This document shows, one piece after another, positions 54,152 through 61,188 of a stretch of 64,000 nt of DNA. The stretch's first letter is position 1. Each line of letters opens with the position of its first letter. Under the pieces are notes generated by a model, which was given only the letters and a program-made list of their open reading frames with translations, did not search any database and was not told the origin of the DNA. A program made the translations under genes and the position numbers. Source of the DNA: Microbacterium caowuchunii (GTDB lineage: Bacteria > Actinomycetota > Actinomycetes > Actinomycetales > Microbacteriaceae); the NCBI RefSeq assembly GCF_008727755.1, contig NZ_CP044231.1, positions 2,852,001-2,916,000 on the forward strand. The letters run 5' to 3'.

Positions 54152-56554
54152 GTGCCCTCGAGTGCGACCCGAGCCGTGTCCGCCCCGCTCGGCGACGTGA
54201 ACGCGTCGTCTGTCGGTGATGTCCTCGAGCGTGCGCGGTCGGGAGGGCGGCTCGACTCCGGCGACGCGCTCGCCCTGCTCGAGGCGACCGGCGACGACCG
54301 CGAGCGTCTGCTCGACGTCGCGTCGCTGCTGCGTGACGAGGGGTTGCGCGCTGCGGGTCGCCCCGGCGTCCTCACCTACTCGCGGAAGGTGTTCATCCCG
54401 CTGACCACGCTCTGCCGCGACCGCTGCCACTACTGCGTGTTCGTGGACACCCCCGGGCAGCTGCTGAAGAAGAGCAGGCCCGTGTTCATGTCGCCGGAGC
54501 AGGTGCTCGCCGTGGCACGCCAGGGCGCGGCGCTGGGCTGCAAGGAGGCCCTGCTGACCCTCGGCGACCGGCCCGAGGACCGCTGGCCGGAGGCCCGTGC
54601 GTGGCTCGACGAGCACGGGTTCGCCTCCACCCTGCACTACGTGGCCCACGTCGCACGGCTCGTCACCGCCGAGACGGGGCTGCTCGCCCACGCGAACCCG
54701 GGCGTCATGAGCGCGGACGAGCTGCGGATGCTCCGGCCCACCTCGCCCTCGATGGGCATGATGCTGGAGACCACCTCCCGGGACCTGTTCGAGACCCCGG
54801 GCCGCGCCCACCACCTCTCCCCCGACAAGGACCCGGAGCTGCGGCTGCGCGTCATCGAGGATGCCGGGGCCGCCCGCATCCCCTTCACCACCGGCATCCT
54901 GGTGGGCATCGGCGAGACCGTGCGGGACCGTGCCGAGTCGCTGGTGGCGCTCCGGGATGCGCACGAGCGACACGGGCACATCCAGGAGGTGATCGTGCAG
55001 AACTTCCGCGCCAAGCCGCGCACCGCGATGCAAGACGCCCCGGATGCCGACCTCATGGAGTACGCCACGACGGTGGCCGCGGCGCGGGTCGTCATGGGCG
55101 CCCGGATGCGGATCCAGGTCCCTCCGAACCTCTCGGACACGACGGAGTTCGATCTGCTGGTGCGCGCCGGGGCGGACGACTGGGGCGGGGTCTCGCCCCT
55201 GACGGCCGATCACGTGAACCCGGAACGGCCCTGGCCCCATGTCGACGACCTGGCCGCGCGCACGGCCCAACTGGGGTTCACGCTGCGCGAGCGGCTGACC
55301 GCGCACCCGGAGTTCGTGCGGGATGCGGCGACCTGGATCGATCCCGCCCTGCACGACGCCGTGGCCGCCCTCCGGGACCCCGGAAGCGGCCTGGCCGCCG
55401 AGTCCGCGCCCTCCTCGGCGCCCGCGACGGCGGAGCGACGGGCGGCGGCCGCACCGGCCCCGCCGCGCCCGGGCACCGGTTCGGACGTGCCGCGGCTGGC
55501 CGCACGGGCGGCGGAGGACCCGCTCGGACTCGACGACGCGGAATGGGTGACCCTGCTCGAGGCCACCGGGACCGACCTGGACGCCCTCGCGGGCACGGCC
55601 GACGAGGTGCGTCGGTACACCGTCGGCGAGGCCGTGAGCATGGTCGTGAACCGCAACCTCACCTCCTCCGGCTTCCGCCGTGGCGGGGCCGCCGCTGCCG
55701 ACGAGTTCGACCTCGCCGACGCGGCGGCGATCGCCCGCGACGCGTGGGACCTCGGCGCGTCCGAGCTCTGCGTGCAGGGGATGCTGCCGGACACGGAGTC
55801 GCCCGACTCCTATCCCGACATCGTCCGCGCCATCCGGTCCGCGGCCCCCGGCCTCCACATCCACGCCTTCCGCCCGCAGGACGTGGTCGACCTCGCCGAG
55901 CGGGCGGGCATCGGCATCGACGGCGCTCTGACCGTGCTGCGCGAGGCGGGGGTGGACACCGTGCCGGGCACCGGCGTGAAGGTGCTCTCCGAACGGGTGC
56001 GCGCGCTGGTGGCGCCCGGAGACCTCGCGATCGACCGGTGGACCGACACGATCACCGCCGCCCACCGGGCCGGGTTCCGTTCGACCAGCGTCCTCTTCTA
56101 CGGACACGTCGAGACCGCCGCGGAGCGCGTCGCGCACCTGCGCGGACTCCGCCGCATCCAGGACTCCACCGGCGGGTTCGCGGAGTTCGTCCCGATCCCC
56201 CTGCCCGGGCCCGCGGGCGGTGTCCCGCTGGTCTCCGGTCGGTCCGGACTCGACGAGCACAGGGCCGTCGTGGCCGTCTCCCGGCTGCTGCTGTCCGGCA
56301 GCATCCCGCACATCCAGATCCCGTGGACGCGGCACGGCACCGAGACGAGCGCCGTGCTGCTGCGCGCGGGCGGGGACGATCTCGGCGGGACGCTGCTCGA
56401 CGGCCGGGTCCGCCCCGAGACCGGCATCGAGTACGGACTCGAACTTCCGCTGCCGGATGCCGCGCGACTCGTACGCGGGCTCTTCCGGCCGTTCCGCCAG
56501 CGCAGCACGGACTACCGCGAACCGCCCGCGGACCGGAAGGCGGCCCTCGCGTGA
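54152..56554 (+). CDS. fbiC: FO synthase, CofG-CofH fusion with degenerate CofH domain
   Basis: FO synthase makes the deazaflavin core of coenzyme F420 from tyrosine and a ribityl-uracil by two radical-SAM steps. The 800-residue protein has the full two-domain length. The CofG half is intact: C88-RDR-C92-HY-C95 binds the 4Fe-4S cluster, and LTLGDRPE, SMGMMLETTSRDLFET and VQNFRAKPRTAM follow. The CofH half (residues ~470-780) keeps ELCVQGMLPD, HIHAFRPQDV, TVPGTGVK, DSTGGFAEFVPIPLP and DLGGTLLDG. Where its CxxxCxxC should be, after NRN at 500-502, it reads LTSSGFRRGGAAAADEF with no cysteine. I see no frame in which the cysteines return. A Pro/Ala-rich linker of ~60 residues joins the halves. 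It heads the F420 operon. Confidence 0.9.
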   Translation: MPSSATRAVSAPLGDVNASSVGDVLERARSGGRLDSGDALALLEATGDDRERLLDVASLLRDEGLRAAGRPGVLTYSRKVFIPLTTLCRDRCHYCVFVDTPGQLLKKSRPVFMSPEQVLAVARQGAALGCKEALLTLGDRPEDRWPEARAWLDEHGFASTLHYVAHVARLVTAETGLLAHANPGVMSADELRMLRPTSPSMGMMLETTSRDLFETPGRAHHLSPDKDPELRLRVIEDAGAARIPFTTGILVGIGETVRDRAESLVALRDAHERHGHIQEVIVQNFRAKPRTAMQDAPDADLMEYATTVAAARVVMGARMRIQVPPNLSDTTEFDLLVRAGADDWGGVSPLTADHVNPERPWPHVDDLAARTAQLGFTLRERLTAHPEFVRDAATWIDPALHDAVAALRDPGSGLAAESAPSSAPATAERRAAAAPAPPRPGTGSDVPRLAARAAEDPLGLDDAEWVTLLEATGTDLDALAGTADEVRRYTVGEAVSMVVNRNLTSSGFRRGGAAAADEFDLADAAAIARDAWDLGASELCVQGMLPDTESPDSYPDIVRAIRSAAPGLHIHAFRPQDVVDLAERAGIGIDGALTVLREAGVDTVPGTGVKVLSERVRALVAPGDLAIDRWTDTITAAHRAGFRSTSVLFYGHVETAAERVAHLRGLRRIQDSTGGFAEFVPIPLPGPAGGVPLVSGRSGLDEHRAVVAVSRLLLSGSIPHIQIPWTRHGTETSAVLLRAGGDDLGGTLLDGRVRPETGIEYGLELPLPDAARLVRGLFRPFRQRSTDYREPPADRKAALA

Positions 56555-58065
56555 GGACGGACGTCGCGATCATCGGGGCGGGGTTCGCCGGTCTCGCGAT
56601 GGCGGGCGCCCTGCGCCGCGCCGGCCGGGAGTCGTTCATCCTGCTCGAACGCGGATCGTCGGTGGGCGGGACCTGGCGGGACAACACCTATCCCGGTGTC
56701 GCCTGCGACGTCCCCTCGCACCTCTACGGCCTCGCGCGCCATCCCTGGCCGGACTGGTCCGGACGCTTCGCCCGCGGGGACGAGATCCACCGCTACCTCC
56801 GGCACGTGGCCGACGCCGAGGGCCTGCGGGACCGGCTCCTGCTGGACAGCCCGATGCTGTCGGCACGGTGGAGCGGCGACCACTGGACGATCGGGACGGG
56901 GGGCGCCCGCCCCGGCACCGTGCACGCGAACCGCCTCGTGCTGGCCTGCGGACGGCTCACCGAACCCCGCATCCCCGATCTCGCCGGCCTCGAGGGTTTC
57001 GCCGGACCGATCTTCCACTCGGCGCGCTGGGACCACACCGTTCCTCTCGCCGGCACGCGGATCGCGGTCGTCGGCACGGGGGCATCGGCCGTGCAGCTCG
57101 TGCCCGAGCTCGTGCGCCGGGGCGCGGAGGTCGTGCTCTTCCAGCGCACGCCCGCCTGGATGGTGCCGCGCGAGGATCGCGCCTACACGGCAGAGGAACG
57201 CCGTCGCTTCGCCGGGCAGCCGGATGAACTTGCGGACCTTCGCCGCACGCTCTTCGACGAGGGCGAGGCGCGGTTCGCCTCCCGCTCGGGCGACCCGGAG
57301 GCGGCGGCCGCAGCCGAGGAGACCGCCCGCGCGCACCTGCGGCGCCAGATAGCCGATCCCGCGCTGCGGGAGGCGCTGACCCCCCGCTACGCCTTCGGCT
57401 GCAAGCGGGTGCTGCTCTCGGACGACTTCTACCCCGCCGTCGCCTCGGACGCCGTCACGCTCGAGGCATCCGCCCTCGTCGGCGTCGAGGACGGCGAGCT
57501 GGTGGCCGCATCCGGGGCGCGACACCGCGCGGACGCCCTGGTCCTCGCGACCGGCTTCGCCGCCTCCCGGCAGCCGTACGCCGACCTCGTCGTCGGCGAG
57601 GACGGGACGACGCTCGCCGAGCACTGGTCGGCGGGGATGACCTCCTACGGGTCGACCGCCGTCCCGGGCTTCCCCGATCTGTTCGTGCTGAACGGCCCGA
57701 ACGCGTCCCTCGGACACAACTCCTCCGTGCTGATGGCCGAGGCGCAGTCGGACTACGTCGTGCGCGCCCTCGACCTCGCGGAGGCTCGGGATCCCGCGGC
57801 CGCCGACCGGCGTCCCGCGCCGCTCCGGGTCGCCCCCGAGGCCGAGGAGGCCTACACGGCGCGCATCGACGCGGCGGCGGCATCCACCCCCTGGCTCCGC
57901 GGCGGCTGCGACAACTGGTACGTGGACCGGCGGTCGGGCCGGCTCACGCTGCTCTGGCCGGGCACGGTGCGGGCCTTCCGGTCCATGCTGGACGAGAGCG
58001 ACGGGTCGGAGTTCCTCCCCGTCGAAGCGATCCGCGACGCGTCGCGGGCGAGAGGAGAGTCATGA
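56551..58065 (+). CDS. Baeyer-Villiger-type flavin monooxygenase
   Basis: A 504-residue class B flavin monooxygenase. The FAD motif GAGFAGLAMA, then GGTWRDNTYPGVACDVPS, the type I BVMO fingerprint F-x-G-x-x-x-H-x-x-x-W (in GFAGPIFHSARWDH), the NADPH motif GTGASAVQLVPEL and the C-terminal LATGF are all present. The GTG start overlaps fbiC as GTGA, and its stop overlaps fgd as ATGA. It is thus co-translated with F420 genes, which is unusual. Its substrate is unknown. Whether it has any link to F420 is only positional. Confidence 0.88.
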   Translation: MRTDVAIIGAGFAGLAMAGALRRAGRESFILLERGSSVGGTWRDNTYPGVACDVPSHLYGLARHPWPDWSGRFARGDEIHRYLRHVADAEGLRDRLLLDSPMLSARWSGDHWTIGTGGARPGTVHANRLVLACGRLTEPRIPDLAGLEGFAGPIFHSARWDHTVPLAGTRIAVVGTGASAVQLVPELVRRGAEVVLFQRTPAWMVPREDRAYTAEERRRFAGQPDELADLRRTLFDEGEARFASRSGDPEAAAAAEETARAHLRRQIADPALREALTPRYAFGCKRVLLSDDFYPAVASDAVTLEASALVGVEDGELVAASGARHRADALVLATGFAASRQPYADLVVGEDGTTLAEHWSAGMTSYGSTAVPGFPDLFVLNGPNASLGHNSSVLMAEAQSDYVVRALDLAEARDPAAADRRPAPLRVAPEAEEAYTARIDAAAASTPWLRGGCDNWYVDRRSGRLTLLWPGTVRAFRSMLDESDGSEFLPVEAIRDASRARGES

Positions 58066-59075
58066 CCGTTCCGCTGCGGCTGGGCTACAAGGCATCCGCC
58101 GAACAGTTCGCGCCCGACCAACTCGCCGACTATGCCGTCCTGGCGGAGGAGATGGGGTTCGATTCCGTCTTCATCTCCGACCACTTCCAGCCGTGGATGC
58201 ACGAGGGCGGGCACGCCCCGGCCGCGCTGCCCTGGCTCGGTGCGGTCGGCGCGCGGACCTCGCGCGTGCTGCTCGGCACCTCCGTGCTCACCCCCACGTT
58301 CCGGTACCACCCGGCCGTCGTCGCGCAGGCGTTCGCGACCCTCGGGGTCATGTTCCCCGGGCGCATCATCCTGGGGGTCGGCACGGGCGAGGCGCTCAAC
58401 GAGGTGACCCTGGGCCTGGACTGGCCCGATCCGCCCGAGCGGTTCCAGCGGTTGAAGGAGGCCATCACCCTCATCGAGAAGCTGTGGGCCGGCGAGCGCG
58501 TCAGCTACGAGGGGAACTTCTGGCAGGTGACCGACGCCACCGTCTACGACCGCCCGACGACGCCGGTGCCGATCTACATCGGGGCGGCGGGGCCCGCCGC
58601 GACGAAACTGGCCGGGCGCATCGCGGACGGGTTCATCACCACCAGCGGCAAGGACCCCAAGCTGTACACCGATACGCTGCTGCCCGCCCTGCACGAGGGA
58701 CTCAGCAAGGCCGGACGCCCCGCCGACGCGATCGACACGCTCATCGAGGTGAAGGTGTCCTACCACCCGGACCAGGACACCGCACTGGAGAAGACCCGTT
58801 TCTGGGCGCCGCTCGCACTGACGCCCGAGGAGAAGACCGGCATCCACGATCCGATCGAGATGCAGCGGCGTGCAGCCGAACTGCCGATCGAGCGCGCCGC
58901 ATCCCGGTTCATCGTCTCGACCGATCCGGACGAGCACGTCGAGAAGATCGCGCGGTACGTCGAGCTCGGGTTCCGTCACCTCGTGTTCCACGATCCCGGC
59001 GCCGACCAGGAGGAGTTCCTGCGCATGTACGGTGCCGAGATCCTGCCGCGCCTGCGCGCCCGGTTCGGGGAGTGA
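58062..59075 (+). CDS. fgd: F420-dependent glucose-6-phosphate dehydrogenase
   Basis: A 337-residue luciferase-like enzyme that oxidises glucose-6-phosphate and reduces F420, providing F420H2 for the cell. Close matches to the mycobacterial enzyme are LGYKASAEQFAPDQL, ISDHFQPWMHEGGHAP, TSVLTPTFRYHPAVVAQAF, GVGTGEALNEV, then ITTSGKDPKLYTD and the C-terminal HLVFHDPG. AGAGGAG stands near the ATG, which overlaps the monooxygenase stop. Its presence shows that the operon serves the use as well as the making of F420. Confidence 0.95.
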   Translation: MTVPLRLGYKASAEQFAPDQLADYAVLAEEMGFDSVFISDHFQPWMHEGGHAPAALPWLGAVGARTSRVLLGTSVLTPTFRYHPAVVAQAFATLGVMFPGRIILGVGTGEALNEVTLGLDWPDPPERFQRLKEAITLIEKLWAGERVSYEGNFWQVTDATVYDRPTTPVPIYIGAAGPAATKLAGRIADGFITTSGKDPKLYTDTLLPALHEGLSKAGRPADAIDTLIEVKVSYHPDQDTALEKTRFWAPLALTPEEKTGIHDPIEMQRRAAELPIERAASRFIVSTDPDEHVEKIARYVELGFRHLVFHDPGADQEEFLRMYGAEILPRLRARFGE

Positions 59076-60022
59076 CCGGCCCCCACGTGCCCGTCGGGGC
59101 CGCCGGGGCGGCCGGGGTGGCGGTGTCGGCCGGGGTGGCCGTGTCGGCCGAGGTGGCCGGGGCCATTGGCGGCGGCCCGTCCCGGGGCAGGTCGGCCGGC
59201 ACAACTCCTGCAGAACCCCACAGTTCGGCCTCGCCGACACCCGAACCCACAGATTCGCCGGAGTTGTGCAGGTCCGCCGAGGCGGCCGGAGGCGCGAGCG
59301 CGGCGGAGGCCGAGGCTCCGTCCGGGCGCCCGTCCCTGGTCCCACCCGCCGGCACAACTCCTGCAGAACCCCACGGTCCGGCCTCGCCGGCACCCGAACC
59401 CGCCGATTCGCCGGAGTTGTGCGGGGGCTGGGTGGTGGTCGTCCCGCTGAAGGGGGCCGCGGTCGGCAAGTCCCGGCTGCAGGGCGACGAGGATCTGGTG
59501 CGGGCGATCGGGCTGGACACGGTGGAGGCGGCGAGCGCCGCAGCATCCGTGTCCCGGGTGGTCGTCGTGACGGGGGATCGGGCGACGGCGGCGGCCGCGG
59601 CCGCTCTCCCCGGCGTGGAGATCGTCACGGAAGCGGACCCGCGCGGACTGAACGCGGCGATCGCGCTGGGCGTCGCCGCGGCCGCCGATGCGCCGCGGGC
59701 GGCGCTGCTCGGGGACCTGCCCGCCCTGCGCCCGGCGGACCTGGACGCGGCGCTGCGGGCGGCCGCCTCCGTGGACCGCGCCGTTGCCGCGGATGGCGAC
59801 GGCACCGGATCGACGCTCGTCACCGCCCGCGCGGGCGTGGCATGGGCTTCGGCGTTCGGCGCAGAGTCGTTCGACCGGCACGTCGCCCTGGGGTGCGTCC
59901 CGCTGGAGCTTCCGGCGGATTCCCGCCTTCGGCACGACGTCGACACCGCCGCGCAGCTCGCGGTCGCCCAGACCCTGGGGCTCGGCCCGCGCACCACCGC
60001 GCTGCTCCCGCCCGCCGGCTGA
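59072..60022 (+). CDS. cofC: 2-phospho-L-lactate (or PEP) guanylyltransferase with repeat-bearing N-terminal extension
   Basis: CofC activates 2-phospholactate or phosphoenolpyruvate with GTP for F420 assembly. The core begins at WVVVVPLKGAAVGKSRL (~59429) and continues with ARAVTGDR-type VVVTGD, ADPRGLNAAIALG, LLGDLPALRPADLD and STLV(T)ARAG, and a C-terminal HDVDTAAQL. In frame ahead of it are ~119 Ala/Gly/Pro-rich residues running back to a GTG that overlaps fgd (GTGA). That extension is encoded by two copies of a 71-bp inverted repeat plus simple sequence. The true start may be 59072, or GTG codons at 59432/59435 with the repeats as spacer. Neither has a good ribosome-binding site. It is the last gene of the operon. 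Confidence 0.85.
   Translation: MTGPHVPVGAAGAAGVAVSAGVAVSAEVAGAIGGGPSRGRSAGTTPAEPHSSASPTPEPTDSPELCRSAEAAGGASAAEAEAPSGRPSLVPPAGTTPAEPHGPASPAPEPADSPELCGGWVVVVPLKGAAVGKSRLQGDEDLVRAIGLDTVEAASAAASVSRVVVVTGDRATAAAAAALPGVEIVTEADPRGLNAAIALGVAAAADAPRAALLGDLPALRPADLDAALRAAASVDRAVAADGDGTGSTLVTARAGVAWASAFGAESFDRHVALGCVPLELPADSRLRHDVDTAAQLAVAQTLGLGPRTTALLPPAG
59199..59269. repeat. 71-bp inverted-repeat element, copy 1 (in cofC leader)
   Basis: Ends GCACAACTCC (59199-59208) and GGAGTTGTGC (59260-59269) are perfect inverted arms around a conserved interior that includes TGCAGAACCCCAC. The second copy lies 153 bp downstream, in the same reading frame. Confidence 0.9.
59352..59422. repeat. 71-bp inverted-repeat element, copy 2 (in cofC leader)
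   Basis: Same arms GCACAACTCC (59352-59361) and GGAGTTGTGC (59413-59422), with an interior nearly identical to copy 1 (about six to eight differences). The spacing of 153 bp is 51 codons. Confidence 0.9.
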
Positions 60023-60234: not shown

Positions 60235-61188
60235 TCAGGCCCGGAGGGCGGCGGCGGCGAGGGCGGCCGATGCCTCGACGTCGGTCATCCACAGCGGGGC
60301 GACCACGGCCCGGATGCCGAGGGCGTCCACGGATGCCGCGGCCTCCGCATCCTCCTCGGCCAGCAGCCACGCATCCAGGACTCCCCCGTCCGAGCGCGCG
60401 CCGTAGTGCGCGGCGACGGCCTCCGCGGAGGTGGCGACGCCGATCGCCGCGAGGCAGACGTCCGCCATCCCCCGCACGACCTTCCCGCCGATCACCGGGG
60501 AGACTCCCACGACCCGCGCGGACGTGCCCCGCAACGCCTCCCGGATGCCGGGTACGGCGAGGATCGGCCCGATCGACACGACCGGGTTGGACGGCGCGAG
60601 CAGCACGACGTCCGCCTCCGCGATCGCCTCGAGCACACCGGATGCGGGAACAGCCGCCTCGATCCCGGGATTCACGAAGGCCGAGGGGGCGAGGGTGGCA
60701 CGATGCCGCGTCCACCACTCCTGGAAGTGCATCCGGGAGCCGTCCGTCAGCACGATGTGGGTGTCCACCTCGGCATCGGTCATCGGCAGCATCCGCACCC
60801 CGAGCGGCCACCGGCGGGAGAGCCGGTCGACGACCTGGGAGACCGACAGCCCGTCGCGGAGCCAGCCCGTCCGGGCGAGGTGGGTGCCGAGGTCCAGGTC
60901 GCCGAGCGTGAACCACGGCCACCCCGCCCCCCAGGCCTGCAGCTCCTCGTTCACGCGCTCGGTGTCGCCGGCCCGTCCCCAGCCGCGCTCGGTGTCGTTC
61001 TGCCCGGCGAGGGCGTAGAGCACGGAGTCGATGTCGGGCTGCAGCCGGACGCCGCTCAGCCACAGGTCGTCGCCGGTGTTGACGACGACCGTCGCCTCCG
61101 GGGCCCCGGCGCGCGCGAGCGCAGCGCGCACCCCGAGAGTGAACCGCGACCCGCCCACGCCGCCGGCGAGGACGACGACGCCGGTCAC
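60235..61188 (-). CDS. cofD: 2-phospho-L-lactate transferase (F420 biosynthesis)
   Basis: CofD/FbiA joins the activated phospholactate or phosphoenolpyruvyl unit to FO, giving F420-0 or dehydro-F420-0. The 317-residue protein has the family start [17 protein letters not shown], then [61 protein letters not shown] and [15 protein letters not shown]. The GTG start overlaps the hemL stop as GTGA, so it is translated from the heme operon and is convergent with the other F420 genes. FbiB/CofE, which adds glutamates, is not in the window. Confidence 0.95.

What the first reader, a model, noticed from the sequence alone, without database searches (positions are those of the whole stretch)
55640..55720. 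CofH half of FO synthase has lost its radical-SAM cysteine triad
The CofH domain of FbiC needs CxxxCxxC for the 4Fe-4S cluster that drives tyrosine coupling. Here the place after NRN (residues 500-502) reads LTSSGFRRGGAAAADEF without any cysteine and several residues shorter. The rest of the domain looks conserved and the CofG motif (C88, C92, C95) is intact. No alternative frame restores the motif, so it is not a simple sequencing frameshift. Yet the operon keeps fgd, cofC and an F420-type PPOX gene. Either another CofH exists, or FO is obtained otherwise, or this domain now has a different job.
Basis: partly seen in the sequence, partly recalled or inferred. Interest (0 to 1): 0.8.

Follow-up and report, generated by a model that had tools for sequence, protein, structure and literature searches.

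The report
Oxygen-type partner replaces CofH radical centre
In many soil actinobacteria one of the two iron-sulphur radical centres that build the cofactor F420 is gone, and its gene instead sits beside a gene for an oxygen-using flavin enzyme, which points to an undescribed second way of making this cofactor.

Summary
In detail: the CofH half of this FbiC lacks the CxxxCxxC triad, with a cluster loop 11 residues shorter. It is no error and no lone oddity. Cys-free CofH forms one clade (104 sequences, SH-aLRT 99), evolves under purifying selection, and occurs in at least nine actinobacterial families, fused to CofG or as a separate gene. It lies downstream of Cys-free CofH in 66 of 67 Microbacteriaceae genomes of a 398-genome sample (in the 67th the contig ends there) and in 20 of 20 order-level and 4 of 4 class-level loci; 20 of 20 canonical Microbacteriaceae loci examined lack it. 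No other CofH was found in this genome, yet CofG, CofD, CofE and Fgd pass curated cut-offs. Best reading: FMO plus the cluster-free barrel replace radical-SAM CofH by O2-dependent chemistry, and CofG finishes FO as usual. The chemistry I propose (a 4-hydroxybenzyl ester collapsing to a quinone methide that alkylates 5-amino-6-ribitylaminouracil) is inference. Four Nocardia genomes carry both forms, and I found no F420 measurement or assay for this form.

The parts
54152..56554 (+). FbiC-like protein, 800 aa: intact CofG half fused to a Cys-free CofH half
   Evidence: TIGR03550 469.2 bits, cut-off 213.35; TIGR03551 298.6 bits, below cut-off 374.1
54374..55363 (+). CofG radical-SAM domain (residues 75-404) with its CxxxCxxC
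   Evidence: CofG CxxxCxxC in 90 of 90 aligned
55532..56521 (+). Cys-free CofH barrel (residues 461-790)
55649..55753 (+). NRN plus the shortened loop that stands where canonical CofH binds its 4Fe-4S cluster (residues 500-534)
55871..55873 (+). Arg574: Ser in canonical CofH, Arg in the Cys-free clade
56551..58065 (+). Type I Baeyer-Villiger-like flavin monooxygenase, 504 aa, start codon overlapping the FbiC stop
   Evidence: fingerprints counted
58062..59075 (+). F420-dependent glucose-6-phosphate dehydrogenase (Fgd)
   Evidence: TIGR03554 464.7 bits, cut-off 420
59420..60022 (+). CofC/FbiD guanylyltransferase, start uncertain
   Evidence: TIGR03552 101.2 bits, just under cut-off 105
60235..61176 (-). 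CofD/FbiA (start uncertain)
   Evidence: TIGR01819 318.4 bits, cut-off 257.45

Best explanation
The CofH half has become a cluster-free substrate-binding barrel that works together with the flavin monooxygenase encoded immediately downstream. The pair replaces the oxygen-sensitive radical-SAM CofH by O2- and NAD(P)H-dependent chemistry and delivers the same coupled product (5-amino-6-ribitylaminouracil carrying a 4-hydroxybenzyl group) to a normal radical-SAM CofG, which closes the ring to FO; CofC, CofD and CofE then make F420. Shown here: loss of the triad, one clade, purifying selection, near-invariant pairing with the FMO, no other CofH found in this genome, conserved CofG and downstream genes. 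Inferred: that the pair does the CofH step. Proposed chemistry, the weakest step: the FMO inserts oxygen next to the carbonyl of a tyrosine-derived keto acid or aldehyde (4-hydroxyphenylpyruvate or 4-hydroxyphenylacetaldehyde), the 4-hydroxybenzyl ester expels carboxylate to a p-quinone methide, and the nucleophilic C5 of 5-amino-6-ribitylaminouracil, held in the CofH barrel, captures it. I give about 0.7 to the pair replacing CofH and about 0.3 to this particular chemistry.
For: (1) Pairing. FMO downstream on the same strand in 59 of 60 Cys-free Microbacteriaceae loci fetched, in the window, and in the 6 other Cys-free genomes of that sample; gap 15-1247 nt from the end of the best tblastn piece. 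In the 60th locus (G116) the contig ends 133 nt after FbiC and an FMO (472.7 bits) lies at 305-1750 of another contig. 20 of 20 order-level loci, 28 of 28 named Cys-free loci, partly the same genomes, 4 of 4 class-level. No match in 20 of 20 canonical Microbacteriaceae loci of about 20 kb. (2) Where Cys-free CofH is a separate gene the FMO is still directly downstream of it, while CofG is on the other strand, or further on, or (7 named loci: L174, L175, L177, L184, L191, L196, L198) not within 5 kb. (3) Cys-free CofH is one side of a branch, SH-aLRT 99; so are the linked FMOs against 9 other BVMOs. (4) dN/dS in 11 pairs: Cys-free CofH 0.11-0.28, FMO 0.12-0.20. (5) CofG: of 142 columns conserved at 90% in both groups all 142 agree; CofH: 5 of 67 such columns switched. 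(6) CofD over cut-off in 65 of 67 Cys-free genomes against 2 of 13 FbiC-less ones; CofE and Fgd over cut-off here. (7) Barrel model pLDDT 89.2, nearest MqnE. (8) FMO fingerprints in 79 of 79 and 78 of 79, nearest solved steroid and phenylacetone monooxygenases, active-site KR aligned. (9) CofH distances correlate with FMO distances given CofG 0.63, with CofG given FMO 0.38, 88 loci.
Against: No biochemistry and no F420 measurement for a Cys-free organism was found. All pairings go back to one clade, so the counts are not independent. Four Nocardia genomes hold the pair and a canonical FbiC, so there it is no sole replacement. Cys-free CofH keeps only 58 of 161 canonical-invariant columns at 90% (CofG 135 of 173) and is less constrained than canonical CofH (0.05-0.16 in 4 pairs), which a changed job would also give. 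Two canonical loci have a distant BVMO (37% identity) on the opposite strand nearby: Sporichthya L215 and G780. Large genomes hold other BVMOs nearly as similar (G1040, 429.6 bits, unlinked). In several separate-gene loci CofG also lies close to the FMO (L154, L155, L168-L173). Alpha-keto acids are not classical BVMO substrates (recalled).
Confidence: 0.7

Rival explanations
1. CofG's own cluster performs both radical steps; the Cys-free domain only binds substrates and the FMO has an unrelated or accessory task.
For: CofG is intact and strongly constrained (dN/dS 0.04-0.12 in 11 pairs).
Against: No CofG column conserved in both groups has switched (142 of 142 agree), and the Cys-free CofH plus FMO pair also stands without CofG within 5 kb (7 named loci).
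Confidence: 0.08
2. These bacteria no longer make FO; they import it or do without, and the CofH domain is a structural relic of the fusion protein.
For: The triad is gone; two FbiC-less genomes keep CofD over cut-off (G258, G006), so import is conceivable in the family.
Against: CofG would hardly be kept under strong selection; Cys-free CofH is itself constrained, also as a separate gene (pairs L160/L164 and L168/L171), where no fusion needs it.
Confidence: 0.06
3. The FMO and Cys-free CofH make a different compound (a modified deazaflavin or something else) and an unidentified enzyme supplies the CofH product.
For: Four Nocardia genomes carry the pair beside a canonical FbiC; only 58 of 161 canonical CofH-invariant columns are kept.
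Against: None of the radical-SAM proteins found in this genome fits; the rest of the F420 pathway is kept; in the Microbacteriaceae sample no listed genome has both forms.
Confidence: 0.12

Closest known systems
FbiC / CofG+CofH FO synthase (TIGR03550, TIGR03551, PRK09234)
   Same: Domain order, CofG half with its triad, CofH barrel fold, position among F420 genes
   Different: CofH cluster loop and triad gone, below the curated CofH and FbiC cut-offs, constant FMO neighbour
MqnE / MqnC radical-SAM enzymes of futalosine menaquinone synthesis
   Different: They keep the Cys motif (MqnC of Actinoplanes reads CVTACKFC) and use other substrates
Type I Baeyer-Villiger monooxygenases (steroid MO 4ap3, phenylacetone MO 1w4x)
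   Same: Fingerprint motifs, active-site KR aligned; phenylacetone MO yields a benzyl ester (recalled), the migration my mechanism needs
   Different: About 40 residues shorter (504 against 542-549 aa), own group tied to Cys-free CofH, substrate unknown
ThiO versus ThiH, HemF versus HemN (recalled, not from a call)
   Same: An O2-using enzyme replaces a radical-SAM step of cofactor synthesis; ThiO, a flavoenzyme, replaces the radical-SAM tyrosine lyase ThiH
   Different: There the radical-SAM protein is dropped; here its barrel is kept without its cluster

Membership tests
CofH (TIGR03551) | CxxxCxxC triad for the 4Fe-4S cluster | tested here: not met
   0 of 81 rows at the triad columns; 55 of 55 canonical rows have all three
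CofH (TIGR03551) | curated score cut-off 374.1 bits | tested here: not met
   298.6 bits with the whole protein, 262.3 bits in the genome search
CofH (TIGR03551) | radical-SAM type barrel | tested here: met
CofH (TIGR03551) | couples tyrosine to 5-amino-6-ribitylaminouracil | not testable with these tools
   needs an assay
CofG (TIGR03550) | triad and curated cut-off 213.35 bits | tested here: met
   469.2 bits; motif in 90 of 90 aligned, window included
FbiC (NF006687/PRK09234) | curated cut-off 1018 bits | tested here: not met
   916.8 bits
Type I Baeyer-Villiger monooxygenase | fingerprints [AG]GxW....[YF]P....D and FxGxxxHxxxW (consensus recalled) | tested here: met
   79 of 79 and 78 of 79 loci; the last fixed letter is W in 77 and Y in 1; L044 lacks the second
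Type I Baeyer-Villiger monooxygenase | active-site Lys-Arg (role recalled) | tested here: met
   GCKR of the window protein aligned with GAKR of 4ap3
Type I Baeyer-Villiger monooxygenase | oxygen insertion next to a carbonyl | not testable with these tools
   needs an assay
F420-making organism | CofD, CofE and an F420-dependent enzyme | tested here: met
   CofD, CofE, Fgd over cut-off
F420-making organism | CofC/FbiD | tested here: inconclusive
   TIGR03552 101.2 bits, curated cut-off 105
F420-making organism | F420 in cells | not testable with these tools
   needs HPLC or mass spectrometry

The most novel reading that the evidence does not exclude
An oxygen-dependent, non-radical route to the deazaflavin FO: a Baeyer-Villiger-type flavin monooxygenase makes a quinone-methide electrophile from a tyrosine-derived carbonyl compound, and a cluster-free CofH barrel steers it onto C5 of 5-amino-6-ribitylaminouracil, so that F420 is made with one radical-SAM step instead of two.
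Probability: 0.33. Interest if true: 0.93.

Novelty: new variant of a known kind. Interest (0 to 1): 0.84.

Why it matters
The 2021 review states that in all studied F420 producers FO is made by a universal mechanism with two radical-SAM domain enzymes (PMC8498797, passages read). A widespread exception would change how F420 producers are predicted from genomes, would add a case of an O2-using enzyme taking over a radical-SAM step of cofactor synthesis while the radical enzyme's barrel is kept, and could give an oxygen-tolerant part for making FO in E. coli, where a 2025 paper suggests that the intrinsic oxygen sensitivity of FO synthase might explain more FO under low oxygen (PMC11917521, passages read). 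It is directly testable with two genes in a laboratory strain.

Tried and rejected
Sequencing error or single-strain loss: rejected. Another CofH in the genome: none found. Possible counter-examples (CofH-range scores without an FMO): the extra hits of two Actinoplanes genomes, G783, G789, G824, G840 and G1001. NCBIfam names MqnC for L255, L272 and L273 and MqnE for L284-L287, all over cut-off, and MqnE for the fragment L283, below cut-off; L274 and L275 were read only as motifs and look like MqnC; L254 and L256 were not put to a family search. G300 and G842 are canonical fragments; G413 and G198 lack the cluster region and score like truncated canonical CofH, so their triad was not seen. A natural FMO-CofH fusion: P0178 (778 aa) joins the end of CofH and an FMO, but the junction reads like a frameshift and the barrel start is missing; not used. 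Bit score of the FMO as sole marker: fails in large genomes. First neighbour clustering timed out and was repeated with a codon-position filter, which can miss genes. Literature: searches of the PMC library; none of the titles and abstract beginnings listed describes a Cys-free CofH, an FMO partner or an oxygen-dependent FO route (two found no paper). Passages of PMC8498797, PMC8210684, PMC6279831 and PMC11917521 were read, nothing else; most subscription papers and preprints are not held. Left unused: the third protein search, one structure job, one genome search. Spread outside Actinomycetota was not tested. L260, L269 and L270 were fetched and not used; of the loci L124-L153 only part entered the tree.

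Full report
Observation. The 800-aa FbiC-like protein at 54152-56554 has a normal CofG half (TIGR03550 469 bits, cut-off 213) and a CofH half below the CofH cut-off (299 of 374 bits). After NRN (residues 500-502) the cluster loop is replaced by a shorter, Cys-free stretch. In an alignment of 81 such domains with 55 canonical ones, none of the 81 has a Cys at any triad column, all 55 have all three, and the non-triad Cys540 is invariant in both.

Not an isolated loss. 119 of the 120 best homologues listed (of 838) could be read there and none shows the triad. Among 398 Microbacteriaceae genomes, 25 have a CofH over the cut-off (508-527 bits; L014-L038, triad read in all 25) and 69 have a best CofH-range hit of 147-338 bits. 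Of these 69, G300 is a canonical fragment, G198 a fragment without the cluster region that scores like canonical CofH, and 67 are Cys-free: the window and 60 fetched loci and the remaining 6. No listed genome has both forms, and 8 further genomes gave only weak or fragmentary matches. Canonical and Cys-free forms occur in different species of one genus (g12, g17, g77).

One clade. In a tree of 135 CofH-type domains the 104 Cys-free ones are one side of a branch (SH-aLRT 99), against 28 canonical and 3 futalosine-pathway rows (quick search, no bootstrap). By record titles they lie in Microbacteriaceae, Micrococcaceae, Promicromonosporaceae, Kineosporiaceae, Nocardiaceae, Tsukamurellaceae, Pseudonocardiaceae, Micromonosporaceae and Treboniaceae. 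In 11 close pairs dN/dS is 0.11-0.28 for Cys-free CofH, 0.12-0.20 for the FMO and 0.04-0.12 for CofG; in 4 canonical pairs CofH has 0.05-0.16. So the domain is under selection, though less tightly than canonical CofH.

The partner. The next gene, 56551-58065, starts inside the FbiC stop codon and encodes a type I Baeyer-Villiger-like flavin monooxygenase: nearest solved structures steroid and phenylacetone monooxygenase, fingerprints and active-site KR kept. In the Microbacteriaceae sample it lies downstream on the same strand of Cys-free CofH in 66 of 67 genomes (and the window), 15-1247 nt from the end of the best tblastn piece; the 67th contig ends 133 nt after FbiC, and that genome has an FMO near the start of another contig. 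It is next to Cys-free CofH in 20 of 20 loci from three other families of the order, 28 of 28 named loci, some of them the same genomes (in L188 the FMO is only partly covered), and 4 of 4 class-level genomes. It has no match in 20 of 20 canonical Microbacteriaceae loci, 20 of the 25 found. Of 52 named canonical loci 51 have no BVMO match and one, Sporichthya L215, has a 37% match on the other strand. A second such case is G780. Genome-wide (E up to 1e-30) the best FMO match is 416-708 bits in 21 of 21 Cys-free genomes, at most 393 in 25 canonical and 319 in 18 FbiC-less genomes, but an unlinked Nocardia BVMO reaches 430. The 99 linked FMOs are one side of a branch against 9 others (FastTree, some long branches). 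These counts go back to one clade and are not independent.

A module of its own. In several groups Cys-free CofH is a separate gene and the FMO directly follows it. In the loci L154-L164 and L168-L173 CofG, where seen, lies nearby on the other strand; two of their contigs match in length and place the named Kineococcus L197 and Quadrisphaera L238. In seven named Actinoplanes and Nocardia loci no CofG lies within 5 kb. Pairwise distances of CofH follow those of the FMO more than those of CofG (partial r 0.63 against 0.38, 88 loci, pairs not independent). In 20 of 80 loci an alpha/beta hydrolase gene sits between CofH and FMO, 3 of them weak matches.

What stayed and what changed. CofG (90 rows against 69 canonical): 142 columns are conserved at 90% in both groups and all 142 agree; 135 of 173 canonical-invariant columns are kept. 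CofH (81 against 55): 67 such columns, 5 switched, among them Ser574 to Arg; 58 of 161 canonical-invariant columns are kept. Kept are NRN (though NRA in L291 and L292), Glu538, Cys540, Gln542, His571, PGT605-607, Arg617, His638, Glu678 and Pro683; lost are the cluster loop, the Gly at 544 and Glu610. I read this as loss of the SAM and cluster side with part of the substrate side kept; that mapping is inference. The model is a confident barrel closest to MqnE.

Pathway context. This genome has Fgd, CofD and CofE over cut-off and CofC slightly under it. CofD is over cut-off in 65 of 67 Cys-free genomes (misses G261 and the 66%-complete G099) and in 2 of 13 FbiC-less ones. Of 20 named Cys-free genomes 16 have no CofH over cut-off and 4, all Nocardia, also have a canonical FbiC. 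Nocardia miyunensis has a CofG without a CofH half plus the pair.

Reading. CofG and later steps look normal, CofH's radical motif is gone, its barrel is retained, and in the loci with room it is never without this FMO. The economical explanation is that FMO plus barrel perform the coupling. A BVMO acting on an aryl-CH2-carbonyl compound would give a 4-hydroxybenzyl ester, a known type of quinone-methide precursor (recalled), and capture by C5 of the pyrimidine gives the bond that CofH makes by a radical (CofH and CofG chemistry as in passages of PMC8498797 and PMC8210684). Other flavin chemistries are possible.

Novelty. Nine searches of the paper library listed no description of such a system; the review names two radical-SAM domains as universal. 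Where one search shows a name for these proteins it is CofG, CofGH or FO synthase, so the change is silent in annotation.

Noticed in passing
L059:8431-9354 (-) and the gap before the FMO in 20 of 80 Cys-free loci: An alpha/beta hydrolase gene sits between Cys-free CofH and the FMO; an ester-cleaving partner would suit an ester-forming FMO.
   Followed up: partly
G780 C1:863701-866210 and L215: A distant BVMO (37% identity) lies beside a canonical FbiC on the opposite strand; possibly an ancestral association.
   Followed up: no
G1039-G1042 (Nocardia): Genomes with both a canonical FbiC and the Cys-free CofH plus FMO pair.
   Followed up: partly
L257, L258 (Nocardia miyunensis): CofG without a CofH half in one place and the Cys-free CofH plus FMO pair in another.
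   Followed up: partly
G258, G006: Genomes with CofD over cut-off but no FbiC match: candidates for FO uptake or another FO source.
   Followed up: no
window about 59190-59425: The stretch before CofC holds two similar copies of a peptide-coding piece (GTTPAEPH...SPELC), as if a short repeat had been inserted ahead of the gene.
   Followed up: no
G000:C1:652596-653030 (L005): The genome has a mycofactocin radical-SAM maturase (652 bits, cut-off 265).
   Followed up: no
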